Made by a program: the position numbers and the translations under genes
In this document: piece by piece, positions 47,879 to 64,000 of the stretch
Numbering within the stretch: the stretch's first letter is position 1
Layout of the letters: each line of letters starts with the position of its first letter
From: Paenibacillus larvae subsp. larvae
GTDB lineage: Bacteria > Bacillota > Bacilli > Paenibacillales > NBRC-103111
Reading direction: 5' to 3'
Length of the DNA: 64,000 bases
Assembly: GCF_002003265.1 (NCBI RefSeq)
Contig: NZ_CP019687.1
Location: forward strand, 1,612,001-1,676,000
The notes under the pieces: generated by a model
Told to the model about the DNA's origin: nothing
Seen by the model: the letters and a program-made list of their open reading frames with translations, nothing else
The model's database searches: none

Positions 47879-48337
47879 TCAATCCAGCTGCTTTAATACA
47901 GCTATTTCGTCACAGCAATGCTGTTTTTTGCAATGAATACAGTCAGTCCACACCTTCTCCGGAAAGATCTCCTTCGAAGCAATATAGAACCCGCTGCGCA
48001 AAAAGAAAGGTACTTCATAAGTAAGGGCCATAACTTTGGGGATTCGCTGCCTGGATGCTTCCTCCAGAAGGGATTCTACCAACCGGCGCCCAATTCCCCT
48101 GCCCTTCTTGTCATCGGCTACCCCCAAAGAGCGGATTTCCACAAGATCATCACCAAGCCGCATTAATGAGCCACAACCGATTACTTTATCCTCCTCCACA
48201 GCAACCACAAAGGTATCAAGCTGCTGAAGAAGGATTTTCCGGGATCTTGACAGCATGATACCTTTGTCTGCATAACTTTCTATCAATTCAAACATGGAAT
48301 CTATATCTTTCTTTTCCGCTTTTCTGCAAGTAATCAC
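47879..48337 (-). CDS. GNAT N-acetyltransferase (ArgA-like)
   Basis: A 152-residue acetyltransferase resembling the catalytic domain of N-acetylglutamate synthase: motif A is LGVADDKKGRGIGRRLVESL, followed by EVPFFLRSGF and a C-terminal CIHCKKQHCCDE cysteine cluster of unclear role. A role in arginine synthesis is possible; no other arginine genes are in the window. It ends in a terminator before the CIRCE promoter. Confidence 0.8.
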   Translation of the reverse strand: MITCRKAEKKDIDSMFELIESYADKGIMLSRSRKILLQQLDTFVVAVEEDKVIGCGSLMRLGDDLVEIRSLGVADDKKGRGIGRRLVESLLEEASRQRIPKVMALTYEVPFFLRSGFYIASKEIFPEKVWTDCIHCKKQHCCDEIAVLKQLD

Positions 48338-48437
48338 GCTTTATCCCACCATTCGTCCGCATTCACTTTATTTCGTATAAATATACAACATTATGAATAA
48401 ACGTACAAGATGGTTTTTCAACATGGCTGAATCATCT

Positions 48438-49589
48438 TTATATCCGGATAAAAGCGGCAAACACTTCATTTCCAAGAAAAAGCCCCTGTTTCGATAACCG
48501 ATACCCTTTCTCGCTTTGTTCCAGGAGCCCTTTTTGCTCCAACTGCCGGATGGTCTGCCCAAAGCGCCCTTCCAGGTCAGTTCCGAACTGATTGTAAAAA
48601 TCATCCCTGGACACGCCTTCCAGAAGTCTAAGTCCAACCATCATGAAATCTTCCATTGCTTCCTGTTCCGGGACAATCTCCTGAGATAGAATGGGACGGC
48701 CGCTTCGCGTCGCGTCAATATAAGGCTGAACACCTTTGATATTGATATGCCGCATTCTGTTCACATAGCCGTGGGCACCAGCCCCGATTCCATAATAGCT
48801 TTGATTGTGCCAATACATCTTATTGTGTCTGCTCTCATAGCCCGACTTGGCAAAATTGGAAATTTCGTAGTGAATAAATCCTTCTTCCGTTAATTTATCC
48901 ATGATAAGCTGGAACATGGCCAGTTCCTCATTTTCACTTGGCAGAGGAAGCTGATCTTTATGATACAGGGTATGAAAAAGGGTATTTTCTTCCACTTTCA
49001 AGCTGTATATCGAATAATGGTGCAAATGCAGCTCCAATGCTTTTTTCAGAGTGTCTTCCATCATTTCTACTGTTTGATCCGGCAATCCGAACATAAGATC
49101 AATAGAGATATTAGCAAATCCCGCCTTATGGGCGTTTTCGATACTTCGGTATACATCATCCGTATTATGAATCCGGCCAATTTTCGTAAGCAGCCCGTTG
49201 TTAAAAGATTGCACACCGAAACTAAGCCGGTTAACTCCGCCACTATGCATCACTTGAAGCTTTTCCAGGTCAGTGGTTCCCGGATTAGCTTCCATGGAAA
49301 ACTCGGTTTGCTCATCAATAGGAAAATAGGTATGAACCATTTCCAAGAATCGTTCCATCTGGTCCGGAAGCAATACGGTAGGCGTACCTCCACCGACAAA
49401 AACCGTTTCTATAGTACCAGGAGGATATTCAAGTACTGTCCGCTCCATTTCCCGCTCCATGGCATCCAGATAATCATGTACAGGTTGTCCTTTTAGGACA
49501 AAAGAATTGAAATCACAGTAATAGCATTTGTTTGTACAAAACGGAATGTGTATATAAACAGCTTTTGGTGCCGGATGCGTCTGGGCCAT
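48438..49589 (-). CDS. hemW: Radical SAM heme chaperone HemW
   Basis: The radical-SAM motif is YIHIPFCTNKCYYCDFNSF (CxxxCxxC). It lacks the fourth cysteine typical of true HemN, which argues for the heme chaperone HemW rather than coproporphyrinogen dehydrogenase. TVFVGGGTPTVL is the SAM-binding GGxTP motif. Length of 383 residues fits. It follows lepA, as in B. subtilis (formerly hemN). Confidence 0.93.
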   Translation of the reverse strand: MAQTHPAPKAVYIHIPFCTNKCYYCDFNSFVLKGQPVHDYLDAMEREMERTVLEYPPGTIETVFVGGGTPTVLLPDQMERFLEMVHTYFPIDEQTEFSMEANPGTTDLEKLQVMHSGGVNRLSFGVQSFNNGLLTKIGRIHNTDDVYRSIENAHKAGFANISIDLMFGLPDQTVEMMEDTLKKALELHLHHYSIYSLKVEENTLFHTLYHKDQLPLPSENEELAMFQLIMDKLTEEGFIHYEISNFAKSGYESRHNKMYWHNQSYYGIGAGAHGYVNRMRHINIKGVQPYIDATRSGRPILSQEIVPEQEAMEDFMMVGLRLLEGVSRDDFYNQFGTDLEGRFGQTIRQLEQKGLLEQSEKGYRLSKQGLFLGNEVFAAFIRI

Positions 49590-49617
49590 GGATGTTACGT
49601 CCTTTCTTTTCTTTTAA

Positions 49618-49647
49618 CAAAAACAGGAGCTTATGTCGCTCCTGTTT
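49618..49647 (-). terminator. Terminator of lepA
   Basis: AAACAGGAGC and GCTCCTGTTT form a 10-bp stem around a 7-base loop, with a T-rich tail on the minus strand. hemW starts only 29 bases later, so it may have its own promoter or read through. Confidence 0.85.
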
Positions 49648-49669
49648 AGCTGCTGATTGTTCTTCTTTA

Positions 49670-51484
49670 TCAATCGTCTATTTTCAGAACCGCCATAAAG
49701 GCTTCCTGAGGTACCTCGACACTACCGACCTGCTTCATGCGCTTCTTCCCTTCTTTCTGCTTCTCAAGCAATTTCCTTTTCCGGGAAATATCACCGCCGT
49801 AGCACTTGGCAAGCACGTTTTTGCGCATCGCTTTTACGGTTTCGCGGGCCACTATTTTTTGACCGATTGCCGCCTGCACAGGAACCTCGAACATCTGGCG
49901 CGGAATAAGTTCTTTAAGCTTTTCGCACAGGATTTTCCCCCGGTGGTAAGCCCGGTCGCGATGGACAATGAAAGATAATGCATCCACTTGCTCCCCGTTC
50001 AGCAGAATATCCATCTTTACCAGATTGGATTTTTTATAGCCGGAAAGGTCGTAATCGAAGGAAGCATATCCTTTGGTACTTGATTTTAGCTGATCAAAGA
50101 AGTCATACACAATTTCGGAAAGCGGAATGTCATAGGTAAGCGTAACACGGTTAGTATCCAAATATTCCATATTTAAAAACTCCCCGCGTTTGCCTTGGCA
50201 CAATTCCATAATAGCTCCGACAAAATCGTTCGGTACAATAATGGAAGCTTTCACATAAGGTTCTTCAATATATTCGATTTTTTGAGGGTCTGGCATATTC
50301 GAAGGATTATCGATTTCCAGTACCTCTCCGCTGGTCATAGTAACTTTGAAAACAACACTTGGAGCCGTTGTAATCAGCGGGATATTAAATTCCCGTTCGA
50401 TTCTTTCCTGAATGATCTCCATATGGAGCAGCCCCAAAAATCCGCAGCGGAATCCAAACCCCAGAGCAGAGGATGTCTCAGGTTCATAACTAAGGGAAGC
50501 ATCATTCAATTCCAGTTTTTGCAGGGCTTCCCGCAGATCATTGTAATCAGAGGTCTCAATCGGATATAAACCACAGAATACCATCGGGTTGATTTTGCGG
50601 TACCCCGGCAGCGGCTCAGGTGCAGGGTTTTTAGCTTCCGTAACGGTATCCCCCACACGGGTGTCTCCCACATTCTTGATACCCGCCACAATAAATCCTA
50701 CATCTCCGACATTCAATTGGTCGATAATGGTCATTCTCGGCATAAAAGCGCCAACTTCGATGACTTCGAACGTTTTATCCGTTGCCATAAATTTTATTTT
50801 GGTACCGGCCTTGATCGCTCCATCCATTACCCGGACATAAACAATAACTCCTTTATACGGGTCATAGTGAGAGTCAAAGATCAACGCTTTTAAAGGTTTG
50901 TCCGGATCACCTTCGGGGGCCGGAACTTTTGTGCAAACCTGCTCCAAGATTTCTTTAATCCCGATACCGGCCTTTGCGGAAGCAAGAACCGCATCGCTTG
51001 CATCAAGACCGATAACATCTTCAATTTCCTGCTTGACCCGTTCAGGATCTGCACTCGGCAAGTCGATTTTATTAATCACAGGCAGTATCTCAAGATCATT
51101 ATCCAGTGCCAGATAAACGTTAGCAAGCGTCTGTGCCTCAATTCCCTGGGCAGCATCTACAACAAGGAGAGCCCCTTCACAGGCAGCCAAGCTTCGGGAT
51201 ACTTCATACGTGAAATCGACATGTCCCGGCGTATCAATCAGATTCAGAATATATTCCTGGCCGTCATCGGCCTTGTAATTCAGGCGCACTGCCTGAAGCT
51301 TGATCGTAATTCCTCTTTCCCGCTCCAGATCCATCTGGTCCAGAACTTGCTGCTGCATTTCCCTAGAGGAAAGTGCTCCGGTATATTCCAGAATCCGGTC
51401 AGCGAGTGTGGACTTGCCATGGTCGATATGAGCGATAATGGAAAAGTTGCGAATTTGTTGTTGTCTTTCATGAATGTCCGTCAT
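49670..51484 (-). CDS. lepA: Elongation factor 4 (LepA)
   Basis: A ribosome-bound GTPase that back-translocates stalled ribosomes. GTPase motifs: G1 [16 protein letters not shown]2 region RGITIKL, G3 DTPGHVDF, G4 INKIDLPSA. The C-terminal LepA-specific domain ends [18 protein letters not shown]. The length of 604 residues is normal. Conserved position between the sporulation genes and hemW. Confidence 0.98.
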
Positions 51485-51560
51485 GCCTTACCCCCACTAA
51501 ACATACAATACCATTTATTATATCAACAGGAAGGGATGTCATCAATTATTTTATCCGTTC

Positions 51561-52004
51561 TTATCGAAAGATCGAATCAAACAGGGATACAACGGAGCTT
51601 ATTCCTTTCTGTGCCACATTTGTGAGCATATCGCCGATATGGTTTCCTACCTGGTTCATACCGCCTGTCTTTTTACCTTCCAGAGGGGGTGAAGCTTTAG
51701 AACCGGCCGGGGTTTCCTTATCTTTTCCGGCTTCCTTACGGGGTGTTCCTTTTTGGTCAAACTGACCATCCAGCAGGGCCCGAAGCACTTTTTTTCGTTC
51801 ATCCTCCCTGATTTCTTCCTCAGTCATCCTGGGTTTTCCCTCTACCTCCGGCGGGGCGGACTTCACTGTATTGTCGGTACGCTTATCAGCTCTCACCGAT
51901 GGTCCCTGAATTTCATTCATCCCCTTCGTAGCCAGTTCAATACCAAGAAAAATGCAGAAACATAATATCAGGCTGAAAATCAGTAAACGGTTATAGTGAA
52001 TCAT
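51561..52004 (-). CDS. yqxA: YqxA/DUF3679-like membrane protein
   Basis: A 147-residue protein with one N-terminal membrane helix (about residues 8-25: LLIFSLILCFCIFLGIEL), a charged Lys/Glu/Pro-rich middle and a C-terminal amphipathic helix (ISSVVSLFDSIF). Position between spoIIP and lepA matches B. subtilis yqxA. Function is unknown; the family name rests mainly on position and layout. Confidence 0.7.
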   Translation of the reverse strand: MIHYNRLLIFSLILCFCIFLGIELATKGMNEIQGPSVRADKRTDNTVKSAPPEVEGKPRMTEEEIREDERKKVLRALLDGQFDQKGTPRKEAGKDKETPAGSKASPPLEGKKTGGMNQVGNHIGDMLTNVAQKGISSVVSLFDSIFR

Positions 52005-52040
52005 GCCTGCCCCTCCTTAATAGCATTGATCCGTCTTTCC

Positions 52041-53237
52041 TTACGAACCGCCGCTTACTTTTTCCGCATTCAAAATTACCTGTGAGATGGCTTCACTTAA
52101 ATACGATGCTGTCCTGTAGGATTCTTCCAGTGTATTGTAGGGTCCGCCTATCTCGATAAGAATGCTGTTGGGAGAAAAGTTTTGATTATAAATACCATTA
52201 GAATTTGTCTCCGTTTTGGCATGGATACCTTTGGAGATGCCCGGGTACTTTTTATCCAGAGCCTGGTGAATCTGAGAGGCAAACTGTTCATTCGCCTTCC
52301 ATTTCGGATTTTTTCCTCCGATAATAAAATACACCTGTGCATAATCCTTACCGTCTATCGTTACCGTTGTTTTATCCCTGGGCTGGGAATCCCGGTGGAT
52401 GTCAAAATAATAAGTTAAATCAGGATGAGCTGTGGCTGCCTCTTCAAGAGTCTTCAGGGAATATTTATAGGAAAACGGATACTTGAATCCTTTGACAACA
52501 TTAGGATAAATTGTCTCGGAATGAATCGATCCTACCCCGTTTTTCTCAAGCTGTTCCGCAAGTTTTTTGCCTACCAGTGTAACGTTTATCTTGCTGTCAT
52601 AGGCCTTATCGGGATTATCTATCCCCTTTAGTTCAGGTAAATAAGACTCATTGCTGTGCGTCTGATATACAAATGCCACATTCCTGGTGATTTTAGGAGG
52701 CTCCTGATTGGCGGCCGGTTCAGGCGTCGGAGCAGGTGTCGGTTCCAGAGTAGGTACGGGTTGAGCGGATGAATCCGGTTCCCCTTGTACCACATCTGAA
52801 GAAGGCATCAAATCGACAGGCGGGCTATTATCGGCAGCTTGTCCCTGATGAAGTACAATGGATTGGTCACCCCCAAGGCCGGGAAGCTCCTGGGAAAGGA
52901 AACTTTTGGGGTCTGCCGGGTTGATATTCGTTATAAACCGGAAAGCAAATCCCATAACATGACGCGGTGAAAATGTGTATTGATCTTCCTGATTTAAATG
53001 GGGAACCTCTAGTCCCAGCATATCCAAAAAAAACTCATTAGAAACAGAAGCGGCGAGACCTTTCATCGAATCGAGAGGAGTTGTAGCTATCTTGCTCTGC
53101 ACCACACTGCCTGTCCCCAGAGCCAGGAACAGGCCCAAGGTAAAAAAGCTGAGGTATATACCGACTTTCGTAATCAGACTGGCTTCAAGCATCATTTTCC
53201 GTACTTTGCTCATGTTGATTACCGCAATTCTTTTCAT
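52041..53237 (-). CDS. spoIIP: Stage II sporulation protein P
   Basis: SpoIIP is a cell-wall amidase/endopeptidase of the engulfment machine. A membrane anchor (about residues 20-44) precedes a Pro/Thr-rich linker (PVPTLEPTPAPTPEP) and the C-terminal hydrolase domain with VYQTHSNESYLP, YYFDIHRDS and ILIEIGGPYNTLEES. ATG at 53237 chosen because AGGAGG precedes it; a 22-residue longer frame exists. Length about 398 residues. Confidence 0.95.
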   Translation of the reverse strand: MKRIAVINMSKVRKMMLEASLITKVGIYLSFFTLGLFLALGTGSVVQSKIATTPLDSMKGLAASVSNEFFLDMLGLEVPHLNQEDQYTFSPRHVMGFAFRFITNINPADPKSFLSQELPGLGGDQSIVLHQGQAADNSPPVDLMPSSDVVQGEPDSSAQPVPTLEPTPAPTPEPAANQEPPKITRNVAFVYQTHSNESYLPELKGIDNPDKAYDSKINVTLVGKKLAEQLEKNGVGSIHSETIYPNVVKGFKYPFSYKYSLKTLEEAATAHPDLTYYFDIHRDSQPRDKTTVTIDGKDYAQVYFIIGGKNPKWKANEQFASQIHQALDKKYPGISKGIHAKTETNSNGIYNQNFSPNSILIEIGGPYNTLEESYRTASYLSEAISQVILNAEKVSGGS

Positions 53238-53384
53238 CTCTTTTCCTCCTACAACGCTTGTGCCGTACAAGCAGGATGCAAAACATAACGCCCCGTCTTT
53301 CATCTATTACACTCTATGAAAAAGAAAGAGAAGCTAGAACTCCCGTTTTGCTAGAAAAATAGAATCCGGGCTTAAGGACAAAAA

Positions 53385-53412
53385 AGCCTCCCTTTAAAAG
53401 AGGGGGCTTCAG
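53385..53412 (-). terminator. Terminator of gpr
   Basis: On the minus strand AAGCCCCCTC and GGGAGGCTTTTTT form a stem with a T-run. Confidence 0.8.
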
Positions 53413-53438
53413 CCTAGGTGAACTTTCCTATTAACTTG

Positions 53439-54434
53439 TCAGTGCGTATAGGCAGCCACATTATTTGTATCAATTGCCTCATGGAGAGCAGCATTCAGTC
53501 CGCTGGCAATGACATTGGCAATATCCTCAATGAACTGGTCAATTTCCTTGGGGGTAACGAGCAGATCGTGTCCAAGCGGACTAAGTACCTCTTTCACAAG
53601 CATCAGCCGCTCATCGTCTGTCATTTGATCAAGCAGTCCCATGATTTGGCCCGCTTGCCGGGTCTGGGAATGAAAATGTTTTTGTATCATGTCGATGGCA
53701 CTGTTGACTACTGTTGAAGCATAGACAACCGTAGGAACACCGATAGCAATCACGGGAACCCCAAGGGTTTCTTCTGTCAGGCCCATGCGCTTGTTCCCGA
53801 TACCGGAACCGGGGTGAATTCCTGTATCGGCTATCTGAATAGTAGTATTGACCCTCTCAAGTGCCCGGGAGGCCAAAGCATCCACGGCAATGACCAGATC
53901 GGGCTTTGATTTATCCACAATCCCCTGCACAATCTCACCGCTTTCCATCCCGGTTATTCCGAGGACACCTGGGGCCATTGCACTGACCGGACGATAGCCC
54001 GGCTCCACCTGATCCGGCATAAGTTCGAAATAATGCCGCGTAATCATCACATTTTCCACAACAAGAGGCCCTAGGGCGTCGGGTGTAACATTCCAGTTTC
54101 CCAGCCCAATAATCAGTACCTTGGCATTTTTGGGAATTCCCCGCTTAGCAAGGAATTGTTCGAACAATTGGGCAAATTTCGTTGCTACCTTATCCTGAAC
54201 CTCTGTATCCTGCCTGCGAAGGCCGGGTACTTCCAGCGTAATATAATGTCCCGGGAGTTTTCCCATAGCCTGGGCACCTTCCTGGGAAGTAATTTCGATC
54301 ATGGTGATATTGATTCCATTCTCGTGATAGGAATCTGTAAGTACACCCGGCAGGTTGGAGCCCCTTGCTTTTGAAGCCATGTCTCTTGCCTCTAGAGCCA
54401 AATCCGTACGCACGGAATAAGCGCCTAAATCCAT
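53439..54434 (-). CDS. gpr: Germination protease (GPR endopeptidase)
   Basis: GPR degrades small acid-soluble spore proteins at germination. The N-terminus MDLGAYSVRTDLALEARDM includes the pro-region cleaved during sporulation. Conserved stretches are VLIIGLGNWNVTPDALGP, DLVIAVDALASR and DTGIHPGSGIGNKR. The length of 331 residues is normal. Divergent from rpsT, as in other Bacillales. Confidence 0.96.
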   Translation of the reverse strand: MDLGAYSVRTDLALEARDMASKARGSNLPGVLTDSYHENGINITMIEITSQEGAQAMGKLPGHYITLEVPGLRRQDTEVQDKVATKFAQLFEQFLAKRGIPKNAKVLIIGLGNWNVTPDALGPLVVENVMITRHYFELMPDQVEPGYRPVSAMAPGVLGITGMESGEIVQGIVDKSKPDLVIAVDALASRALERVNTTIQIADTGIHPGSGIGNKRMGLTEETLGVPVIAIGVPTVVYASTVVNSAIDMIQKHFHSQTRQAGQIMGLLDQMTDDERLMLVKEVLSPLGHDLLVTPKEIDQFIEDIANVIASGLNAALHEAIDTNNVAAYTH

Positions 54435-54530
54435 TTGTCTTTAAGCTCCTCTCAATCTCAGATACCTGATATTGTTTGAAAAATAGTGATTTCTTATGCA
54501 TAGGGGAACGCTCCAACCCCGGCCAACCTA

Positions 54531-54559
54531 TTGCTTTTTCTAATACTGCGTGGTAGAAT
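54531..54559 (+). promoter_or_regulatory. Sigma-A promoter of rpsT
   Basis: TTGCTT (54531-54536), a 17-base spacer and TAGAAT (54554-54559) precede rpsT. Confidence 0.8.
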
Positions 54560-54619
54560 ATCTAAAGTTGTCAACAAATGAAACGTTGAACGCCTTACTT
54601 GAAGTAGGAGGTGAATGTC

Positions 54620-54892
54620 ATGCCAAACATCAAATCCGCGATCAAAAGAGTAAAGGTGAGCGATAAGCGCCGTCTTCGCAACGCCTCTCAAAAATCCGAT
54701 CTTCGCACTGCGATAAAAGCTTTTGAAACCGTTGTTGCAAGCAATAACGTTGATTCTGCTAAAGAAGCTTTCGTCGTTGCTTCCAAAAAGTTGGATAAAG
54801 CAGCGTCTAAAGGATTAATCCATAAAAATGTTGCTAACCGCAAAAAATCTCGCCTGGCTAAAAAGCTCAACGAGTTGGTTGCACAAGCATAA
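54620..54892 (+). CDS. rpsT: Ribosomal protein S20 (bS20)
   Basis: A 90-residue basic helical protein of the 30S subunit: [18 protein letters not shown] at the N-terminus and [19 protein letters not shown] at the C-terminus. The ATG at 54620 is chosen because AGGAGGTGA precedes it; a GTG 9 bases upstream is less likely. Own promoter and terminator. Confidence 0.98.
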
Positions 54893-54915
54893 TTTTTCAA
54901 AACATAACCATGAGA

Positions 54916-54953
54916 GAACAGCTCCGCCGTTTTTAAAAACGGCGGAGCTGTTC
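54916..54953 (+). terminator. Terminator of rpsT
   Basis: GAACAGCTCCGCCG-TTTTT pairs perfectly with AAAAA-CGGCGGAGCTGTTC; the palindrome covers 38 bases. Confidence 0.88.
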
Positions 54954-54990
54954 CGTATATGAAGTTATAAAATCAGATTTTATGTCTCCT

Positions 54991-56016
54991 TTAAAACCCG
55001 GCGGCTTGCTTTAAGAGAAAGAAGTGAAGCCCCATCGTTTTGTCCACCTGCCCGGTTTTCATTTGGTAATCCAAATCCGCGAGGGCTGAAATAACCTGGC
55101 TGAGCTGTTCTTCCGAATACGTTTTGCCCTGCTGATCCGCAATTTTTACCGCATAGGGATGCAATCCAATCTGGGAGGCGGTTTGCTGATGGGAATACCC
55201 TTGTTTACTCAATGCTTTCACCTGCAGCATAATCCGGTATTGTCTGGCGATCAGCATGACCAGTTTAATTGGCTCTTCTTTTTGCCTGATCAAATCTTCC
55301 AGCAGATCAAATGCTTTGTTCATCCGCTTTTGAACCACATGCTCAACCAGCATGAAGACATTTTGTTCCGCCGTTCTTGGGACCATCTGATCAATCAATT
55401 CTCCCGTGACGGTCCCGCCTTTTCCCACATATAAAGAAAGCTTTGCTATTTCTTTGGAGATGGACTGAAGATGTCCGTCCGTATATACAATAAGCTGTTC
55501 GACCGCTTCAGGACTGAATGTAAATTTTGCTTCCGTCGCCTGCTTTTTTATCCATGCCTGAAGATGATCAACAGATAAAGGAGCGCAGGGTACGATCACT
55601 CCGTTTTGCTTGACCAGTTTAACAATTTTTTTCCGCTCATCCAGCTTTTCCGCATCCACGCGGAAAACCAGAACGGTGTAATCAACAGGAGCTTTCATGT
55701 ATGCGGTAAGTTTGTCCAGATCATGATCAAGCTTGTTATTTTCTTTGGCCGCCGTAAACAAAGCCGACCGCTGCACATATACCAGCTTACGCGGAGCCAT
55801 AAACGGCAGCGTTTCGGCATCAGCAATGATATCCTGAACGGGGGTTTCGGTTAAATCAAATTTACTGACGGCAAATTCCCGTTGATCAGGGTCTATCAGC
55901 GCCTCAGTGAGTTTACCTATAAATTGGTCAATTAAATAAGGTTCTGTCCCGTAGCAGAGATAAACCGGGGCGAAATCCCCTTTGCCGATTTGCTTCAATG
56001 CATCCTTATAGTCCAT
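54991..56016 (-). CDS. holA: DNA polymerase III subunit delta
   Basis: HolA opens the beta clamp during loading. N-terminal motif FAPVYLCYGTEPYLIDQF and the family pattern FDLTETPVQDIIADAETLP are typical. About 341 residues from the ATG at 56016 (AGAGGTGAAGG upstream). Conserved place next to rpsT. Confidence 0.94.
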   Translation of the reverse strand: MDYKDALKQIGKGDFAPVYLCYGTEPYLIDQFIGKLTEALIDPDQREFAVSKFDLTETPVQDIIADAETLPFMAPRKLVYVQRSALFTAAKENNKLDHDLDKLTAYMKAPVDYTVLVFRVDAEKLDERKKIVKLVKQNGVIVPCAPLSVDHLQAWIKKQATEAKFTFSPEAVEQLIVYTDGHLQSISKEIAKLSLYVGKGGTVTGELIDQMVPRTAEQNVFMLVEHVVQKRMNKAFDLLEDLIRQKEEPIKLVMLIARQYRIMLQVKALSKQGYSHQQTASQIGLHPYAVKIADQQGKTYSEEQLSQVISALADLDYQMKTGQVDKTMGLHFFLLKQAAGF

Positions 56017-56047
56017 ACCTTCACCTCTTTTTTTCATCTTACCAACA

Positions 56048-56094
56048 GCAAAGGGATTACGTCAAAACCTGTCGGCTTGACGCAATCCCTTTGC
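56048..56094 (-). terminator. Hairpin between the anti-sigma gene and holA
   Basis: GCAAAGGGATT-CGTCAA pairs with TTGACG-AATCCCTTTGC (17 of 18 bp). No strong T-run, so it may be an attenuator or terminate weakly. Confidence 0.65.
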
Positions 56095-56128
56095 CGGGGT
56101 AAAGGAAACACGGAAGAGTTTCCCGCTT

Positions 56129-56195
56129 ATAAGATAAGATACGCCCCTGTTTACAAGGAATCAGATTCAGGCAGGAATCAGCCATCTTATCTTAT
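56129..56195. repeat. 12-bp perfect inverted repeat
   Basis: ATAAGATAAGAT at 56129-56140 and ATCTTATCTTAT at 56184-56195, 43 bases apart, lie in a 250-base gap between holA and the anti-sigma gene. I see no gene in this gap. Confidence 0.8.
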
Positions 56196-56347
56196 GGAAA
56201 AACCTCGAGCTTTTGCCCGTACGAAGGCGGAACAGCATTTATTTGAACACCAGCGGCTTGGCTCTAGAAACCAAAACGCCGGTGAGTGTCCAACTCAGTT
56301 CCTTTCTTACCATACAGTATACGCAAAAACTCTGAAATGGTTCATCT

Positions 56348-57372
56348 TTATGAATTTACCGGTTGTTCTACTTTATCTTGGATTTGAATCACAAACTTTT
56401 GAGTTAGGTTACCGCTTGCCACTTCATAAGTGAAGCTGTTGTTGCCATTCCATCCGACCAGTAGCACTACATCATCTTGTTTCCATTGAAAGGAAGAAGA
56501 ATAAACAATCGTCTTGTCGGCATTGCGGATTATAACTTTTTGATTCTCGTTAGATGCAATCAGTTGACCGTCCCCGGTTTTCAACTGATTCTGGTTTATC
56601 TCCTGAAATTTGCCTACAATTTGCTTATTGACCTCGTCTTTGTCAGGTTGGGGCTGAACCGGAGGGGTCTCAGGCTCAGTTTTATCCGGTGCGGGGTCCT
56701 CTTTAGGCTTTGACGGTTTCGCAGCAGGTTGGGATGATGGTTTTTCCCGGTTTGGCTTGGAAACAGTTTCTTTGGGACTCTGTTGGACCTCCCCTTCACA
56801 TTAGGTCCATCATCCTTCTTCTCCGCTTTCACAGGCTCAACGTGAACAGGTTCCACTTTCTGCTGACTGGATGGTTTTTCTTCCATAAGCATGTTCTGCT
56901 CAGAAGGCGGTTGTACCGGTTCAGTTTCACTTTGCTCGGCTGTTATAAATATCTCTCCTGCATCCACAGCGCCCTCGGTCTGCAAGGAAGATACAGTAAA
57001 ACCAAGCGAAACCATACAAAAACCAAATACCGTTGCCACGATCCCCAGACCGTAACGACGGAATCTTCGCTTACAAAAACGGAATTGTCTGTCTAATTGT
57101 TTGGAGCTTTTTTGAAGGGGCCTAACAATAGCTGCTCTGGAACCTGTTGAATCAGGAAAAGGCAGTTTCGGAAGAACCCGATCAACCAGGCTGTAAGGCG
57201 GTTTGATTTGTGGCAAAGGTGCGATGTCCTTCTCAAGCAGTTTTAAACGCCAATATAACTCCATACAGGAAGAACACTGCTCGATATGCAGGAGGAGCTT
57301 TTCCCGCTGAACCGGGCTCAAATGATGATCCAAATCTTCCTGCATGAAAGATACAGCCTCATTACACCTCAT
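56348..57372 (-). pseudogene. Anti-sigma factor with zinc finger, one frameshift
   Basis: The N-terminal zinc-binding domain (MRCNEAVSFMQEDLDHHL; HIEQCSSC) is the usual binding site for an ECF sigma factor. A membrane helix follows (GIVATVFGFCMVSLGFTVS, about residue 112). After about residue 190 the frame shifts in a GGGG run near 56800; with one more G it continues GEVQQSPKETVSKPNREKPS through a Pro/Glu-rich region to a C-terminal domain ending FVIQIQDKVEQPVNS at 56348. Its ATG overlaps the sigma stop. Confidence 0.85.
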
Positions 57373-57936
57373 CCTGGATGCCTCCCCTCTGATAATCTTG
57401 CAGGAAAACCTGCAATTGTTGTCTGGAGCGGAAGAGATAGGATTTGACCGTATTTAAAGGCAATCCGAGACGATTTGCTATTTCATGATAGGAAAAACCG
57501 TTTAAATACCGCAGTACTACCACAGAACGATGATGATCCGGCAATTTATGTATAGCTTTCTTATGTCTTCTATAAGGTAAGCATTCATTACTTCATCTTC
57601 TACATTCCTGTCGCACATAAAATGAAGATCATGCTCTTCAATGGATACAGTAGGCTTGGCCTTTCTGAACTTATCAATACAAATATTCGTAACGATACGT
57701 TGAACCCACGTCTTAAACTGGGCTTTTTCCTCATAAGAACCGATTTTCGAATAAATACGGATGAGCACTTCTTGAGAAGCATCCAGTGCATCCTGTTCAT
57801 TGCCAAGCAAATAGTAGGCTGTACGATAAACATAGGTTTCAATCTCTCGCAGCAGGCTAACGAGTGCTTCCTGATTGCCGGATTGGGCTTCTCTTATGAC
57901 TTCAGGCGGTACCACGCTGCTCCCCCTCTCCTGCAC
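57362..57936 (-). pseudogene. ECF RNA polymerase sigma factor, one frameshift
   Basis: Region 2 is intact (YVYRTAYYLLGNEQDALDAS; VLIRIYSKI; FKTWVQRIVTNICIDKFR). A missing base near 57548 (ATAAATTG, where an extra A restores the frame) cuts off region 4, which is found in another frame (LPDHHRSVVVLRYLNGFSYH; EIANRLGLPLNTVKSYLFRS). As written the protein could bind core polymerase but not the -35 box. Its stop overlaps the anti-sigma start by translational coupling. Confidence 0.88.
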
Positions 57937-58340
57937 CTTTACAGACGCTTGTTAAGCATTGAAGGTTGCAACCATCTATTAATATGAAGAAAAAAAATCT
58001 TGGTTTTCCGACTTTGGATATACCCGGTAAAAAAGATAACTGTCAGGAAGTTAGGTAATTTGTCAAACAACTGGGCCGAAAGAGTTAACTTTCTTTCATG
58101 GATATATGAAAAATTCCCTATAGCGGAATCTATCATACCATAAATTTAGTATTTTTTTGTCGTATTTCTTCGGTTTTTGTCATCTTTTTTTAATTCAGGT
58201 TCTCTATTAATATCGGAAATTGTCGGCAAATGTTTAAAGACTTACACACCTACTAAAGACCCAAAGAAGTTAGACTCCATTTTTTTAATCTGACTTATTG
58301 CCGCAATCCTGACAGATTAATAGAGAGCTAAAACATAAAG
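57937..58340. other. Intergenic stretch upstream of the sigma operon
   Basis: About 400 AT-rich bases without a supported gene. It holds the sigma operon's promoter region and marks the left edge of the bacteriocin locus. Confidence 0.5.
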
Positions 58341-58383
58341 AACCCAAGGGAGGACACTTTTTCAAGTATCCATCTCTTGGGTT
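58341..58383 (-). terminator. Terminator of the bacteriocin transporter genes
   Basis: On the minus strand AACCCAAG pairs with CTTGGGTT, enclosing an inner stem GGATACTT / AAGTGTCC with a GAAA loop. A T-rich tail follows. Confidence 0.85.
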
Positions 58384-58439
58384 ACGGTTTTACGGGCGAG
58401 AATTATTCTACATATGTGAGAACGTTTAAAGAGAGCCGT

Positions 58440-59114
58440 TTATGGTTGTACAGTCTGAATGTTGCCGTCTTTCATGTTAAAACAGAGATCACATTGATCT
58501 GCCACTTCAGGATCATGTGTAGATAAGACAATCGTCATCCCCTCATTTTTTATTTCCGTTAATAAATGTATGACCGAGTCTCTGGTGGTACTGTCCAGAT
58601 TTCCTGTTGGTTCATCGCAGATTAATAATTGAGGTGAATGGATAAGTGCCCGTGCAACCGCTACCCTTTGTTGTTCTCCACCTGAAAGTTCCGAAGGCAG
58701 ATGGTGAATTCTATGGGATAATCCTACTTTATCCAACATTTCAGCTGCACGTTTTTCTTTAGAGAATGTTGTTTTTAGAGGAACCAACGGCAAACATACA
58801 TTGTGTAGTGCCGATAACTGTGGTAATAAATGCGGAGATTGAAAAGAAAAGCCTATATACTTTTGTCGTATGGTTTGCCTATTAGAATCCGATATTAGTT
58901 CCCCATCTATATAAATATCCCCTTCAGAAGGGCTGGTTTGAAGACCCATAATTGAAAGCAGTGTTGTTTTCCCCGATCCGGAAGGACCCATAATGGAAAC
59001 CATAGTATTTCGAGTTATCAATAACGAGATGTCTTTAAGCACCTCTACTTGTTGTTTAGCTAAAGAATATGATTTGAAAAGTTTATGCATGGAAACAATA
59101 TGTTCATTCGTCAT
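58440..59114 (-). CDS. ABC transporter ATPase, lactococcin 972 group
   Basis: A 224-residue ATPase with all motifs: Walker A MGPSGSGKTTLLS, Q-loop FSFQSPHLLPQL, signature LSGGEQQRVAVARAL, Walker B LLICDEPTGNLD and H-loop STHD. It resembles MacB/LolD-type ATPases that pair with FtsX-like permeases. It starts 11 bases after the large membrane protein gene. In lactococcin 972 operons an ATPase of this type is the third gene, so a role in export of or immunity to the peptide is inferred. Confidence 0.92.
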   Translation of the reverse strand: MTNEHIVSMHKLFKSYSLAKQQVEVLKDISLLITRNTMVSIMGPSGSGKTTLLSIMGLQTSPSEGDIYIDGELISDSNRQTIRQKYIGFSFQSPHLLPQLSALHNVCLPLVPLKTTFSKEKRAAEMLDKVGLSHRIHHLPSELSGGEQQRVAVARALIHSPQLLICDEPTGNLDSTTRDSVIHLLTEIKNEGMTIVLSTHDPEVADQCDLCFNMKDGNIQTVQP

Positions 59115-59125
59115 AACATCCTCCG

Positions 59126-61633
59126 CTATATATGTCTGTTCAGCTTATTGATTTTCAATAACAGATAATAAAATCCTATAAGAAGAAAAATGGACATGAA
59201 TATGGCCATGCAAAGGATTTGGGCGTAAATAGGAATAGGAAAATCAGTATAAAAAATACGGAAAACACCCAAACCCAAAAAAAGCGAAATGGAAAAGCCA
59301 AGGAAATAGGTAAGAGAAAACTCTATGAATAACAACTTTCTGATCGACCGGTTGGTCCAACCAACCCGATTCAAAATAACAATTTCATTTTTTCTTTTGC
59401 CAATTAAACCTGCTGCATGTTCAAATAAGTTGAATAAAATTAAAACAACTAAAGCGACCAGGATAAACAGATGAAAACCAAACATATTTAAGTTGACCGC
59501 TTCACCTAAAAAAGTCGTTTGAACATTTTTTCTTGTACCAAAAAGCATATTGAGTAAAAACAGAATCGTACCTAAAGAAGCAGCTAATGAAAGCACAATG
59601 TACCCCGTATACGCCAGTTGTGATTTAAAATTCCCCCATGCAAGCCCAAAAACGGAAGAAAGGGCAACGTGTTTCTTTTTCCATTCCTTCTCAACTCCAA
59701 CTTGTACATCTTGCTTGTTGATTTTAAATAGTTGGTACCAGATGGAAGCAAAAATCCATATAACGATAATGAATTGGATATATAGTACGCTTTCCCAAGC
59801 AATACTTACGGACTGATGCAAAAAAATCAGAACTAAAACAGATAAGCTTAAACCGCCGACCAGTTTTATCCCCCATTCTAGAGCCAGCATCTTCTTCAAA
59901 TCTCTCATTGTCCATCCAATTCCCAGCAATACAGAATATTCCTTTCTCCTTACCGTCAACAAGCTCCGTGTATGTACCACTGCAAAGACAGCCGTAAGCA
60001 AAAATAAGCTAAGCATAATAAATAAGGAGACATAATCCATCGACTTTGTTATGGAGGCCGCAACGCCTAAAGTAGTCCATATTTCTTTGACAATGCCTAC
60101 GTTTGGAAAGTCGCTCGTTTCCGGTATTTTTACATGCATCTGTTTTTTTGAGGCACCGGCCACAATATCTGTATGAAGTCCTGTAAGTTCATAAATGCTT
60201 TTGGCGACTTTTTTTATTTTTGCTTCTGTTTGAGAATCATATCCACCGATATCTTTTACCCGAACACGTATAGCGTCAATAGGTGTCTCGCCTTTTAATA
60301 GCTCTATATTTGATAAATTTGTTATCGCGCTTGCTTGGATGGGCAGGAAAGTATCCGGGGTCAGATCTTTTTTCAGTTCAATATTTTGTTTGTTGCCGTC
60401 TTGATCAAGTACAAGATAGACCGGGGAAAAGGAATATATCCCCAGCGGGCTCGGGTCCAGGTCGGAATTGCCTATACTCTTTCCGCTATACGTGCCTGTG
60501 ATTTGATAATCAAAACTTCTCTCTTCAGGCAAGCCACCCCGGACGGCCATCTCTTTTTTGATAAGAGGTCTGTATTTTCCATCCTTCGGTTTTAATAGGA
60601 AGTCGTAATTTTCACCTTTACCGGCTTCTTCATAGTTCAGACGGTCTGTTAAATAGTAAACCGATGTATCTAAAGAGGAATTGATGCCCCCGAAAGTTTT
60701 TTGCAAGTTGCCTTTTTGATCAAGGTCAAGGCGACTTATGCGAAAAGGCTGTAACTCTTTAGACAAATCAAACTTTTCTTTCAATATTGGCGGATTTTTT
60801 AAGTCATGCTCTAAAAACTTATTTACTTCAGACAGGTCTTTCATCTGCCTAAATTGTTGTTTCCACTCCTCCTCGGATTTAGTTGATTTTCTAACTTCGA
60901 ATAATGCCTGCATCGAAACATCACTATCTTCATTAATTAGAAGAGGGATAGACGGGGGAAGTTTAGTTGATTTTTCAGTTCCCAATCTATCTGTAATATT
61001 CATTTTTTGGGCGGTTAGCTTATCTTCTTGTTCAGGGTCTACTGCTACGAGTAGATTGTAGTTTGTTGGCAGGGTGAAATTAATGAACTTTTTTCCGTCC
61101 TCTTCCATAAAACCCATCGACCTGTTAGGCATGATTGGAGGATCACTTAAAGGAATATTCACTACATGTGTATCCAAAACCTGTTTATATGAATCCGGAA
61201 GTCCCGTTTCATTTGATATTTTTATGGAAGTAACCCAGGTGTTTTCTTTCACACTTGGCAGCTCAACCTTTATCCCTCCGGAATCGTTGGTAAAAAAGCC
61301 TAACACGGATACAGGTGCAGCCACTTCCACATCGGGAATATCAGTTATTTTTTTGTACTGGGCTAAACTAATTCCCCCTATTCCTCCTGTTAAATAATTT
61401 TCTTCTACTATCCCTTTTTTCTGTTCAATATCTGAACGTGCTTCCGGATGCCTGACCAGAATGTCATAGCTTCCGCGGCTATATTTATGAATAGACTCGC
61501 TTAGAGCAACTTTGCTGGAATGCAGACTATTATATGCAAACGGGATGGAGCCGAATAAACAGCCTAAAAGCAAAACAGATATGAAAAAATTCCATTTCCC
61601 TTTACGATGCAACAAGAACAGAAACTTGAACAT
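59126..61633 (-). CDS. Bacteriocin-associated integral membrane protein (lactococcin 972 type, FtsX-like)
   Basis: An 835-residue membrane protein. One helix near the N-terminus (FISVLLLGCLFGSIPFAYN), a large extracellular domain of about 500 residues, then about six helices (for example VSLFIMLSLFLLTAVFAVVH, VLIFLHQSVSIAW, FHLFILVALVVLILFNLF, LTYFLGFSISLFLGLGV). This 1 + large loop + multi-helix plan matches the immunity-related membrane protein of lactococcin 972 loci. It partners the ATPase downstream. Copy B of the 37-bp element lies 36 bases upstream of the start. AT-rich, likely acquired. Confidence 0.82.
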   Translation of the reverse strand: MFKFLFLLHRKGKWNFFISVLLLGCLFGSIPFAYNSLHSSKVALSESIHKYSRGSYDILVRHPEARSDIEQKKGIVEENYLTGGIGGISLAQYKKITDIPDVEVAAPVSVLGFFTNDSGGIKVELPSVKENTWVTSIKISNETGLPDSYKQVLDTHVVNIPLSDPPIMPNRSMGFMEEDGKKFINFTLPTNYNLLVAVDPEQEDKLTAQKMNITDRLGTEKSTKLPPSIPLLINEDSDVSMQALFEVRKSTKSEEEWKQQFRQMKDLSEVNKFLEHDLKNPPILKEKFDLSKELQPFRISRLDLDQKGNLQKTFGGINSSLDTSVYYLTDRLNYEEAGKGENYDFLLKPKDGKYRPLIKKEMAVRGGLPEERSFDYQITGTYSGKSIGNSDLDPSPLGIYSFSPVYLVLDQDGNKQNIELKKDLTPDTFLPIQASAITNLSNIELLKGETPIDAIRVRVKDIGGYDSQTEAKIKKVAKSIYELTGLHTDIVAGASKKQMHVKIPETSDFPNVGIVKEIWTTLGVAASITKSMDYVSLFIMLSLFLLTAVFAVVHTRSLLTVRRKEYSVLLGIGWTMRDLKKMLALEWGIKLVGGLSLSVLVLIFLHQSVSIAWESVLYIQFIIVIWIFASIWYQLFKINKQDVQVGVEKEWKKKHVALSSVFGLAWGNFKSQLAYTGYIVLSLAASLGTILFLLNMLFGTRKNVQTTFLGEAVNLNMFGFHLFILVALVVLILFNLFEHAAGLIGKRKNEIVILNRVGWTNRSIRKLLFIEFSLTYFLGFSISLFLGLGVFRIFYTDFPIPIYAQILCMAIFMSIFLLIGFYYLLLKINKLNRHI

Positions 61634-61668
61634 GAATATGCACTCCGATATGAAAATGTAATTAGAGA

Positions 61669-61705
61669 AATTAAACGCTCACCAGTTGGTTTATGAAATG
61701 GATTC
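61669..61705 (-). repeat. 37-bp element, copy B
   Basis: Matches 33292-33328 at 33 of 37 bases in the same orientation. It sits between the bacteriocin terminator and the start of the membrane protein gene, so it may be part of that gene's promoter or leader. Confidence 0.75.
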
Positions 61706-61716
61706 TGGAATATAAA

Positions 61717-61738
61717 ATAGGAGACCAACGTCTCCTAT
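61717..61738 (-). terminator. Terminator after the bacteriocin gene
   Basis: ATAGGAGAC and GTCTCCTAT form a perfect 9-bp stem with a four-base loop, then TTTTATATT on the minus strand. It separates the peptide gene from its transporter genes and would give more peptide message than transporter message. Confidence 0.85.
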
Positions 61739-61746
61739 CTTCGTTT

Positions 61747-62028
61747 CTATCTTACTGTTACTACTGCACCGGCAGTAGTTGAATAACCACCGGAACCAAC
61801 ATATAAAGCAGGGTATTTTGTTCCTGATGAGGAGTAAAAATGATACCATGTATGTGATTTATTAGACCCAATATAGTCATATTTAGTTATTCCTTCTCCT
61901 ACATTCAGAGTGGCAACGTAAAAGGGAGGGTAAACTCCGCCATACCAACTTCCACCAAATTTAGCATAATGTTGACTACATATTACTATAAAACCCATAT
62001 AAAGTGAATATAAATACTTATATTTCAT
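61747..62028 (-). CDS. Lactococcin 972-like bacteriocin precursor
   Basis: A 93-residue peptide. Its core begins GGSWYGGVYPPFYVA and has YDYIGSNKSHTWYHFYSSSG, then a Gly/Ser/Thr-rich end: aromatic and Gly/Ser-rich with GxW, Tyr-Tyr and Lys-x-His features as in lactococcin 972. The next two genes (large membrane protein, ABC ATPase) complete the known locus type. The leader (MKYKYLYSLYMGFIVIC) is a weak, atypical signal peptide, and GAGG lies only 2 bases before the ATG, so the 5' end may be damaged. It starts 13 bases from the comEC stop, which suggests a recombination joint. Confidence 0.6.
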   Translation of the reverse strand: MKYKYLYSLYMGFIVICSQHYAKFGGSWYGGVYPPFYVATLNVGEGITKYDYIGSNKSHTWYHFYSSSGTKYPALYVGSGGYSTTAGAVVTVR

Positions 62029-62040
62029 TTCCTCTTTCGC

Positions 62041-62550
62041 TTACATTTTGTTTCTATAGCTTATATTCCCATTCTTTACTTGCACCTCTACTTCCCCAAG
62101 CAGATCCGTGCGCAGAACCGGTATTTGTCTCTGTTCCAACCTTTCCAGAATATCCGGTGAAGGGTGTCCGTACCGGTTATTTACGCCTGCGGAAATCAAG
62201 GCAAGTTTGGGTTTCCAATAATCCAGCCATTCTGGTGAGGTCGAGGTTTTACTGCCATGATGGGCTACTTTGAGTACGTCCACCTCTTTCTCAGGGAGCA
62301 GCTCGGGCTGTTGCAGCAATTCCCTTTCCTCCTCTTTCCCCATGTCTCCGGTGAATAACCATTTCGTTCCCTCCAGATAGAGCAAAAAGACAACTGATTT
62401 TGCGTTTTGATCCTTTTCAAGCGGAATTTCTTCATCTTCAGCCGGCGGCTTATTTTCCCGGGCAGGAGGATACAGGATCTGAAGAAAAGTGTTCCGGTCT
62501 ATAGGAATCGATATCCCTTCCGTCCCCCCGATTAGGGTGAACCCGAGCCC
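62041..62550 (-). pseudogene. comEC: ComEC/Rec2 remnant (C-terminal metallo-beta-lactamase part)
   Basis: ComEC is the membrane channel for DNA uptake. Only about the last 165 residues remain, from GFTLIGGTEGISIPI to the stop at 62041. Seen: WLFTGDMGKEEE, LKVAHHGSKTSTSPEWLDYW and GVNNRYGHPSPDILERL, all typical of the ComEC C-terminal domain. Upstream of 62550 the frame meets a TAG stop and all similarity ends, with no sign of the membrane channel domain. The gene was cut by an insertion or rearrangement. Confidence 0.9.
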
Positions 62551-62573
62551 CTAATATAACTATCTACATCTTT

Positions 62574-62599
62574 AAAACCCTTGATTTATAAGGGTTTTT
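62574..62599. terminator. Hairpin at the comEC junction
   Basis: AAAACCCTT and AAGGGTTTTT form a stem with a 7-base loop about 20 bases beyond the comEC break. A terminator hairpin next to a joint is common at integrase ends; here it also stops reading into comEC. Confidence 0.75.
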
Positions 62600-62718
62600 C
62601 TTGTTCGCGTCTGTTCGTATCCGAGTGAATTATGGTGATTCCGAGTACATTTCGTCCCCAATTCGTCCCCAATTCGCCCTCAATGAGAGTCGAAACTATA
62701 TATCTCAAACATTAATAC
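62600..62718. other. Junction stretch with a repeated 12-base unit
   Basis: TTCGTCCCCAATTCGTCCCC holds two copies of CGTCCCCAATT at about 62657-62680 and a third, degenerate copy. On the minus strand the stretch is open for about 34 codons (GELGTNWGRN ...), which could be the end of an integrase gene, but this is not proven. Confidence 0.35.
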
Positions 62719-62719
62719 A

Positions 62720-62752
62720 ACGGAGCAACCTCATATAAGCGGGTTGCTCCGT
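62720..62752 (-). terminator. Terminator of the broken small gene
   Basis: ACGGAGCAACC and GGTTGCTCCGT form an 11-bp stem directly after the restored stop of the gene at 62759. Confidence 0.8.
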
Positions 62753-62758
62753 TTCAAT

Positions 62759-63083
62759 TTACTTGAGCGTTAAAATTTCATCCACTGCTGCTCTGTAAGC
62801 TAATTCAATCGCTTTAGACTTGACGTGAAACATCTCTTCAAGTTCAAAATAATTATCTATTTCATTGTCAGGGATATACTTCATAAGGTCTTTGAACCTT
62901 TTTTTCAAATCTTAGAACAGACTGGTTATTCTTTTCATATTCATCACGCAACTGATAAATGCGAGATTGAATTGACGGTTCTAAAATTTCCTTTACCATA
63001 GTTGGACAACTCCCCTTATTGGCATCTTTACCGATCTCTAAATACAATTTTGATAAGTCAACTTGCTTTTTAATCTGACTCAC
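62759..63083 (-). pseudogene. Small hypothetical protein, one frameshift
   Basis: From MSQIKKQVDLSKLYLEIG the protein is charged and helical. A run of 7 T (+ strand, 62898-62904) shifts the frame to a stop; with 6 it continues FEKRFKDLMKYIPDNEI, then NYFELEEMFHVKSKAIELAY, to end DEILTLK at 62759, about 107 residues. No known domain is recognised. The location next to the comEC break suggests a mobile-element gene. Confidence 0.6.
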
Positions 63084-63691
63084 CTCTTGTTTATTTTAGT
63101 TTCATGATATTGTGAACTCGCTCTAGGAAGTTCTGAACGGATAACCTTTAAATAAATCGTTTACAAAATACCTGCAATTGGTTCTAAGATAAGTAATGTC
63201 CCTCCCTATTGTTATATTTGTTGATGCCACGTTCATTACTTCCCCCACTTCTAGTTAAATTAATGGTTAGAACACCGCTTTCAAATCATTCACTCAAACT
63301 TATGTACTAGGTGAATAACTTCACAATCCATCATGCATCACTCCCTTTCTTTTCTATATATATCCATTATAAAAGTGGTTCAATTATTGATACAACAATC
63401 AATTTATACCAAAACGAGAACAAAACAGATAAATGTTGAAACTTCTAGTTTCTGCTTTTTCCAAATTATGTATAAAGCCGAAAGAAATCTTCAAGGTTAT
63501 CACCTTTTTATTCCATCTCCTTAAGGACATTTATCCATTTCATCTTAGCATTCAGTTTTAGGATATATTTTCCACTTGTAAAGTGGAATGGGGTTATGCT
63601 ATGTTTTTATTGGAATCGTTGGTTTTCCCACCAACTTCTGAGCATTTTTTCTCGATGGCTTCCGGTAAGTTGGGGCCCAATATCATCCATG
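63084..63691. other. AT-rich stretch without a supported gene
   Basis: About 600 bases with only short open frames lacking ribosome-binding sites. One small inverted repeat (TTCCACTT-GTA-AAGTGGAA, near 63570-63588) is seen. This may be the scar of rearranged DNA between the protease and the comEC remnant. Confidence 0.5.
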
Positions 63692-63735
63692 AAAAAGATC
63701 ACGTTGGCAAAATTACTCCATCGTGATCTTTTATT
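63692..63735 (-). terminator. Terminator of the M4 protease gene
   Basis: AAAAGATCACG and CGTGATCTTTTT form a stem of about 11 bp with an 18-base loop, just after the protease stop. Confidence 0.88.
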
Positions 63736-63752
63736 ATTAGAATTTTTCGCAA

Positions 63753-64000
<248 letters not shown>

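What the first reader, a model, noticed from the sequence alone, without database searches (positions are those of the whole stretch)
58440..62028. Lactococcin 972-type bacteriocin locus next to a broken comEC
Three same-strand genes form the arrangement known for lactococcin 972: a small Gly/Tyr/Ser-rich peptide (61747-62028), a very large FtsX-like membrane protein (59126-61633) and an ABC ATPase (58440-59114). A perfect terminator after the peptide gene and a second one after the ATPase fit high peptide and low transporter expression. The block is AT-rich and replaces the usual neighbours of comEC. The peptide's leader is unusual and may be damaged.
Basis: partly seen in the sequence, partly recalled or inferred. 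Interest (0 to 1): 0.75.

Follow-up and report, generated by a model that had tools for sequence, protein, structure and literature searches.

The report
Relic of an undescribed bacteriocin-like operon
Beside a competence gene of what appears to be the honeybee pathogen Paenibacillus larvae lie a small peptide gene and a two-gene membrane pump; they resemble a lactococcin 972 bacteriocin operon but seem to belong to a different family with no database model, and the peptide gene looks damaged.

Summary
The three ORFs, their order, the AT-rich composition and two hairpins are real. The lactococcin 972 (Lcn972) label fails: the peptide matches no Lcn972 model and scores inside its own shuffles against a profile of 10 Lcn972 peptides; the membrane protein does not match the Lcn972 permease family; the ATPase scores higher with LolD. 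A separate PF09683 (Lcn972) peptide gene lies elsewhere in the genome. In a 27-row FtsX tree the 835-aa protein and four others form one side of a branch with 100/100 support. Three of those four have a Gly/Tyr/Ser/Trp-rich peptide gene beside the FtsX/ATPase pair. The closest (L129) has the same order (peptide, hairpin, FtsX, ATPase), and its peptide is similar to this one (0 of 2000 shuffles as good). The block is most likely a copy of an undescribed bacteriocin-like operon: a Sec-exported peptide plus an immunity-type ABC/FtsX pump. The peptide lacks about 40 residues ahead of its core compared with L129, lacks the TTGACA box found upstream in all three relatives, and starts 12 nt after the comEC stop, so the pump may be what is left. 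Antibacterial activity is inferred. comEC is split by a prophage-like element of about 53 kb.

The parts
61747..62028 (-). Small Gly/Tyr/Ser-rich peptide ORF (93 aa, one Cys), probably an N-terminally shortened relative of the L129 peptide
   Evidence: the L129 peptide is the best of 1985 ORFs for it; 0 of 2000 shuffles as good, z 7.45; GSW at residue 26 here, residue 68 in L129
61717..61738 (.). Perfect inverted repeat between peptide and FtsX genes (terminator/attenuator-like); L129 has a hairpin at the same place
61669..61718 (.). Piece of a short repeat found at 16 other places in this genome, between the peptide gene and FtsX
59126..61633 (-). FtsX-type permease, 835 aa: by hydropathy one N-terminal TM, about 500-aa outer domain, then seven further TMs
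   Evidence: Pfam FtsX 39 bits against cut-off 25.5; hydropathy; tree with L129
58440..59114 (-). ABC ATPase of LolD/MacB type, open over its whole length
   Evidence: TIGR02211 LolD 214.7 bits (cut-off 307.75), L_ocin_972_ABC 185.7 bits (cut-off 254.85); 51% identical to the L129 ATPase; nearest solved chains 5xu1 and LolD
58341..58383 (-). Hairpin with T-rich tail after the ATPase gene (terminator-like; not listed by the pattern scan)
   Evidence: absent
62041..62540 (-). C-terminal part of comEC; its stop lies 12 nt ahead of the peptide start codon

Best explanation
The block is a copy of an undescribed bacteriocin-like operon. In the intact form (as in L129) a Sec signal peptide would export a Gly/Tyr/Ser/Trp-rich, Cys-free protein of about 100 residues that acts on other bacteria. 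A hairpin after the peptide gene would keep transcription of the next two genes low. The FtsX protein, with its large outer domain, and the LolD-like ATPase would work as a MacB/LolCDE-type pump that pulls the peptide off the producer's own envelope (immunity) or helps release it. In this genome the peptide gene appears to have lost its promoter and the first part of the mature domain and now starts just behind comEC, while the pump genes remain open. Shown: the ORFs, hairpins, relatives, gene order, tree position, and similarity to the L129 peptide. Inferred: secretion, antibacterial action, immunity role, and loss of function of the peptide gene.
For: In a tree of 27 FtsX proteins (cut to 900 aa) this one pairs with L129 (99/98), and both with L130, L134 and L132 lie on one side of a branch with 100/100 support. 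A small ORF with a hydrophobic leader lies beside the pump in L129, L130 and L134. FtsX is 36% identical to L129 over 845 columns, the ATPase 51% over 219. Gene order and hairpin are as in L129. Peptide against L129: score 83, shuffle mean 34, 0 of 2000; rank 1 of 1985 ORFs, and best of 174 window ORFs for the L129 peptide, 83 against a next best of 38. All three relatives have TTGACA within 80 nt upstream of the peptide; the window has none in 150 nt.
Against: A profile of L129+L130+L134 does not recognise the peptide (-1.1 bits, inside 5000 shuffles), and L129 is not clearly similar to L130/L134 (z 1.9 and 1.6): sequence homology is supported for one relative only. tblastn against 157 held records gives L129 only E 0.19, behind two chance-type hits, L037 (0.098) and L035 (0.16), that had been fetched because they matched. 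L036, fetched the same way, scores 71, and two Lcn972 peptides reach z 4.3 and 3.2, so composition adds to such scores. L132, in the same group, has no such peptide in the 15 kb read. The tree program warns of long branches meeting at the branch that sets L130/L134/L132 apart. Codon usage is weak. No activity data were found for any member.
Confidence: 0.6

Rival explanations
1. The ABC/FtsX pair is an ordinary envelope pump (LolCDE/MacB/YtrEF-like stress or detoxification) and the 93-aa ORF is a chance or dead frame unrelated to it.
For: Codon usage of the ORF is ambiguous; no Pfam, NCBIfam or PHROG match above threshold; tblastn with the four peptides found no further L129-type peptide in the held loci of other FtsX relatives.
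Against: Similarity to the L129 peptide in the same place, with the same order and hairpin; peptides beside 3 of the 4 other members of the group.
Confidence: 0.2
2. The secreted peptide is not a killer: it is a signal, adhesin or coat-type protein that the pump releases or senses.
For: No activity data were found; some FtsX/ABC pairs serve lipoprotein or envelope traffic (established knowledge of LolCDE).
Against: More distant FtsX relatives lie near small Cys-rich peptides and exporters in at least 3 of the 5 loci fetched (L055, L057, L058), a bacteriocin-type setting; the layout copies Lcn972 operons.
Confidence: 0.13
3. It is a true but very divergent lactococcin 972 locus.
For: Same order peptide-permease-ATPase as Lcn972 operons on Bacillus plasmids; pairwise scores above most shuffles for 2 of 10 Lcn972 peptides (L064 z 4.3, L063 z 3.2); ATPase scores 185.7 bits with L_ocin_972_ABC; weak matches between the wider FtsX group and single Lcn972 permeases (best 8.8 bits).
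Against: Profile from 10 Lcn972 peptides: -1.8 bits, place 1478 of 1980 scored rows, while 10 of 10 left-out members score 31-80 bits. Permease: -23.6 bits with a profile of 6 Lcn972 permeases; HHalign probability 6%, E 0.006, over 97 columns; no TIGR01654 match. Lcn972 permeases show two outer domains by hydropathy, this one shows one.
Confidence: 0.07

Closest known systems
Lactococcin 972 operons (PF09683/TIGR01653 peptide, TIGR01654/DUF1430 permease, TIGR03608 ATPase)
   Same: Three-gene layout in the same order; Gly/Tyr/Trp-rich peptide; FtsX-type permease and LolD-type ATPase
   Different: No family match of peptide or permease; by hydropathy a single outer domain of about 500 aa instead of two smaller ones
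Pneumococcal streptococcin B scbABC (PMC11796350, passages read)
   Same: Peptide plus two immunity/transport genes; that paper cites 157 of 571 genomes keeping only scbBC, like the suspected pump-only state here
   Different: Lcn972 family and competence-regulated; no such regulation shown here
LolCDE, MacB and YtrEF-type ABC/FtsX pumps
   Same: ATPase type and FtsX domain
   Different: Permease with a 500-aa outer domain and seven further TMs by hydropathy; no solved relative found by sequence at E up to 1
JUQZ-1/BLB8 family bacteriocin of Brevibacillus laterosporus (NF053514; PMC11747845, passages read)
   Same: The L129 peptide matches the model's first 55 positions weakly (14.9 bits, E 0.023)
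   Different: Below the cut-off of 40 bits, and the match includes the leader; the window peptide does not match. A lead only

Membership tests
Lactococcin 972 | Peptide matches PF09683/TIGR01653 | tested here: not met
   No such match at E up to 1 (Pfam) or up to 10 (NCBIfam); PF09683 search of the genome at E up to 10 finds only C1:2790625-2790807; own profile -1.8 bits
Lactococcin 972 | Permease matches TIGR01654 / DUF1430 group | tested here: not met
   No match; -23.6 bits with a profile of 6 Lcn972 permeases; HHalign probability 6%
Lactococcin 972 | ATPase over TIGR03608 cut-off | tested here: not met
   185.7 bits, cut-off 254.85; LolD model higher at 214.7, though below its own cut-off too
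Lactococcin 972 | Order peptide, permease, ATPase on one strand | tested here: met
   one search compared
Lactococcin 972 | Inhibits cell wall synthesis through lipid II | not testable with these tools
   needs a bench test
L129-type peptide/FtsX/ABC operon (no published name found in the searches made) | FtsX groups with L129/L130/L134 | tested here: met
   100/100 for the group, 99/98 with L129; long-branch warning by the program
L129-type peptide/FtsX/ABC operon (no published name found in the searches made) | Peptide similar to the group's peptides | tested here: inconclusive
   L129: 0 of 2000 shuffles; L134: 12 and L130: 23 of 2000; three-member profile does not recognise it
L129-type peptide/FtsX/ABC operon (no published name found in the searches made) | TTGACA box upstream of the peptide gene | tested here: not met
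   None in 150 nt upstream, against 3 of 3 relatives with one
L129-type peptide/FtsX/ABC operon (no published name found in the searches made) | Sec-type signal peptide | tested here: inconclusive
   Best 12-residue hydropathy 2.02 here, 2.15-2.59 in the three relatives; no signal-peptide predictor was available

The most novel reading that the evidence does not exclude
There is an undescribed family of Sec-exported, Cys-free, Gly/Tyr/Ser/Trp-rich antibacterial proteins with their own FtsX/ABC immunity pump, convergent in layout with lactococcin 972. This genome carries a copy that has decayed to a pump-only (immunity) state behind comEC.
Probability: 0.45. Interest if true: 0.65.

Novelty: new variant of a known kind. 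Interest (0 to 1): 0.42.

Why it matters
It corrects a plausible but wrong family label and points to a peptide/pump group for which Pfam and NCBIfam gave no peptide model above threshold. Intact-looking members such as L129 can be tested directly. If they kill bacteria, they add a second evolutionary solution to the Lcn972 layout, and the decayed copy would be a case of a strain keeping immunity after losing the weapon.

Tried and rejected
Lcn972 membership: tested by curated models, by a home-made profile with leave-one-out controls and by permease profiles; rejected.

Structure route: single-sequence AlphaFold models of the peptide (mean pLDDT 47.9) and of FtsX (39.7) were too poor, so no fold search was run.

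Weak matches to the peptide in the own genome (L036, L037) and in two other genomes (L034, L035): L034, L036 and L037 were read and taken as chance, since they lie among unrelated genes; L035 was not read. PDB match to VP24 (E 0.0039): two weak pieces on a composition-biased query, taken as chance. Sub-threshold Pfam PF22125 (E 0.19) and NCBIfam Ceg19 (E 1.1) matches of the peptide: taken as chance.

Scans that found no relative of the query: genome contigs with FtsX and with the peptide, viral contigs, phages, plasmids with the window, L134 and L129 peptides. Rfam: no match at gathering level in 57400-64000. PADLOC: matches for the ATPase only, of a generic kind. The TMcin bacteriocin paper (PMC12328743, passages) describes another gene set.

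Idea that the peptide is driven by competence through comEC: not supported; comEC is split here and no promoter element was shown.

The output (neighbours of 25 loci) was cut in the middle, so that reading is incomplete; the tblastn covers the 157 records held then.
Full report
Setting. The window lies at C1:1612001-1676000 of a one-contig, 4.29-Mb genome. The integrase stretch beside comEC matches 22 phage records at 80-90% identity (83.9% in the ten listed), all with P. larvae hosts. 72 phage records match parts of 57500-64000, and the hosts listed are P. larvae strains. I therefore take the host to be P. larvae; this is an inference.

Observation. Pfam finds FtsX (39 bits) in the large protein and ABC_tran in the ATPase, and only a sub-threshold match in the peptide. 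The block is AT-rich, 38.0% GC against 45.2% in 48000-57936. A perfect inverted repeat follows the peptide gene; it folds better than 200 of 200 shuffles, although the pattern scan lists it for the other strand only and terminator-like sites are not clearly in excess in this stretch. A hairpin follows the ATPase gene.

Not lactococcin 972. The peptide has no TIGR01653 or PF09683 match. A PF09683 search of the whole genome finds one place, C1:2790625-2790807 (41.1 bits, cut-off 22), far from the window. That 125-aa peptide lies near an ATPase whose best NCBIfam match is L_ocin_972_ABC, and scores 23 bits with TIGR01653 (cut-off 32.1); the permease near it appears broken into frames of 493 and 189 aa. 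A profile from 10 Lcn972 peptides (6 from genome searches, one of them this genome's own; 4 from plasmids) gives the window peptide -1.8 bits, place 1478 of 1980 scored rows among 2000 shuffles and two forms of the peptide. Left-out members, with their near copies also left out, score 31.2 to 80.2 bits in 10 of 10 cases. The permease scores -23.6 bits with a profile of 6 Lcn972 permeases. Profile-profile comparison of 10 proteins of its wider group with these 6 gives probability 6%, E 0.006, over 97 columns, and single cross-matches reach 8.8 bits, which I read as the common FtsX fold. Hydropathy shows one outer domain of about 500 residues here and two outer domains in the Lcn972 permeases. 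The ATPase scores 214.7 bits with LolD and 185.7 with L_ocin_972_ABC, below both cut-offs. Against this: pairwise scores of the peptide with two of the ten Lcn972 peptides exceed most shuffles (L064 z 4.3, 5 of 2000; L063 z 3.2, 15 of 2000); the other eight reach at most z 2.01. I read this as shared composition; remote kinship is not excluded.

What it is related to. FtsX relatives were found in 48 of 398 class-level genomes at E 1e-8 and in 8 of 392 order-level genomes at E 1e-10, own included in both. The best, L129, has FtsX 36% and ATPase 51% identical to the window's. Directly ahead of its FtsX gene lies a 134-aa ORF with a Sec-type leader (by eye and hydropathy) and a Gly/Tyr/Ser/Trp-rich body, followed by a hairpin: the same order and layout as here. 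L130 and L134 also have such an ORF, ahead of ATPase then FtsX; their two peptides are 67% identical. In a tree of 27 of the FtsX proteins held, cut to 900 residues, the window protein, L129, L130, L134 and L132 lie on one side of a branch with support 100/100, and the window protein pairs with L129 (99/98). The root is a midpoint, and the program warns that long branches meet where L130, L134 and L132 join. L132 has no such peptide in the 15 kb read. tblastn with the four peptides over the 157 records held found no further member.

Peptide homology. The window peptide aligns with the L129 peptide from residue 17 to 84: score 83, shuffle mean 34, 0 of 2000 as good. Among 1985 distinct ORFs of 60-160 aa in the held loci (copies of the window's own locus left out) the L129 peptide ranks first; L036, an own-genome ORF that had been fetched because it matched, ranks second; L134 and L130 rank third and fourth; two Lcn972 peptides (L029, L063) fifth and sixth. 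Among 174 window ORFs the peptide is the best match of the L129 peptide, 83 against 38. Limits: a profile of L129, L130 and L134 fails to recognise it; L129 is not clearly similar to L130/L134; tblastn gives L129 only E 0.19, behind L037 and L035, which had been fetched because they matched. The case rests on L129 plus gene context.

Damage. GSW starts at residue 26 here and 68 in L129, and LSW at 60 and 53 in L130 and L134. The start codon lies 12 nt after the comEC stop. All three relatives have TTGACA within 80 nt upstream of the peptide; the window has none in 150 nt. The comEC C-terminus is normal. The simplest reading is that a rearrangement brought a shortened peptide gene against comEC and removed its promoter. 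The leader is still moderately hydrophobic (2.02 against 2.15-2.59), so some secretion is possible. The pump genes are open. This resembles the pneumococcal scb locus, where 157 of 571 genomes keep only the two non-bacteriocin genes (PMC11796350, passages).

Mechanism. Shown: gene set, order, hairpin, family relations. Inferred: Sec export, antibacterial action, and an ABC/FtsX pump that removes the peptide from the producer's envelope. More distant FtsX relatives lie near 65-71 aa Cys-rich peptides and exporters of about 600 aa in at least 3 of 5 loci fetched (L055, L057, L058), which fits a role of the wider FtsX group beside secreted peptides.

In print. PMC6527061 (listing and passages) reports an Lcn972-family protein, W2EAN2, in the exoproteome of four P. 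larvae genotypes; since it was assigned to the Lcn972 InterPro family it should be the other locus, not this one (inference; its sequence was not seen). PMC9341999 (passages) lists ComEC/Rec2 and an FtsX-like permease among prophage genes of P. larvae; these may be the split comEC and this FtsX (inference). Searches for P. larvae with lactococcin 972, with bacteriocin/comEC, with W2EAN2 and with FtsX, and for bacteriocin with FtsX-like permease, signal peptide and immunity, listed no title or abstract that describes this locus. Five papers were opened, in passages only: PMC6527061, PMC9341999, PMC11796350, PMC12328743 and PMC11747845.

Noticed in passing
window 62540 to beyond 64000; L044:2-847; C1 about 1674540-1727520: comEC is split by an element of about 53 kb with a tyrosine integrase next to the comEC N-part; the integrase is 84% identical to those of P. 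larvae phages.
   Followed up: partly
L023:3364-7967 (C1:2786363-2790966): A separate PF09683 (Lcn972) locus: 125-aa peptide, ATPase, and a permease that appears broken into two frames.
   Followed up: partly
window 61669-61718: Part of a short repeat present at 16 other places in the genome, several copies with a hairpin-like core by eye, sitting between peptide and FtsX genes.
   Followed up: partly
window 57362-57936 and 56348-57372: The ECF sigma gene and the zinc-finger anti-sigma-like gene after it each appear, by eye, broken into two frames; only the first piece of each was scanned.
   Followed up: no
L055:2898-3104, L057:11194-11391, L058:9573-9788 and 10846-11055: Cys-rich 65-71 aa ORFs without a Pfam match, near ABC exporters, thioredoxin-like proteins (by eye; the one scanned matched only at E 0.069) and an FtsX; the L055 FtsX has a peptidase M1-like stretch near its C-terminus just under the cut-off. 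Possible unrecorded bacteriocin clusters.
   Followed up: partly
window 62536-62673: Sequence at the element's edge repeated in the genome; three other copies are 94-96% identical.
   Followed up: no
window 63753-64000, L025:1754-3316: M4 (thermolysin-type) peptidase gene inside the element, 98% identical over 242 bases to one in phage Callan.
   Followed up: no
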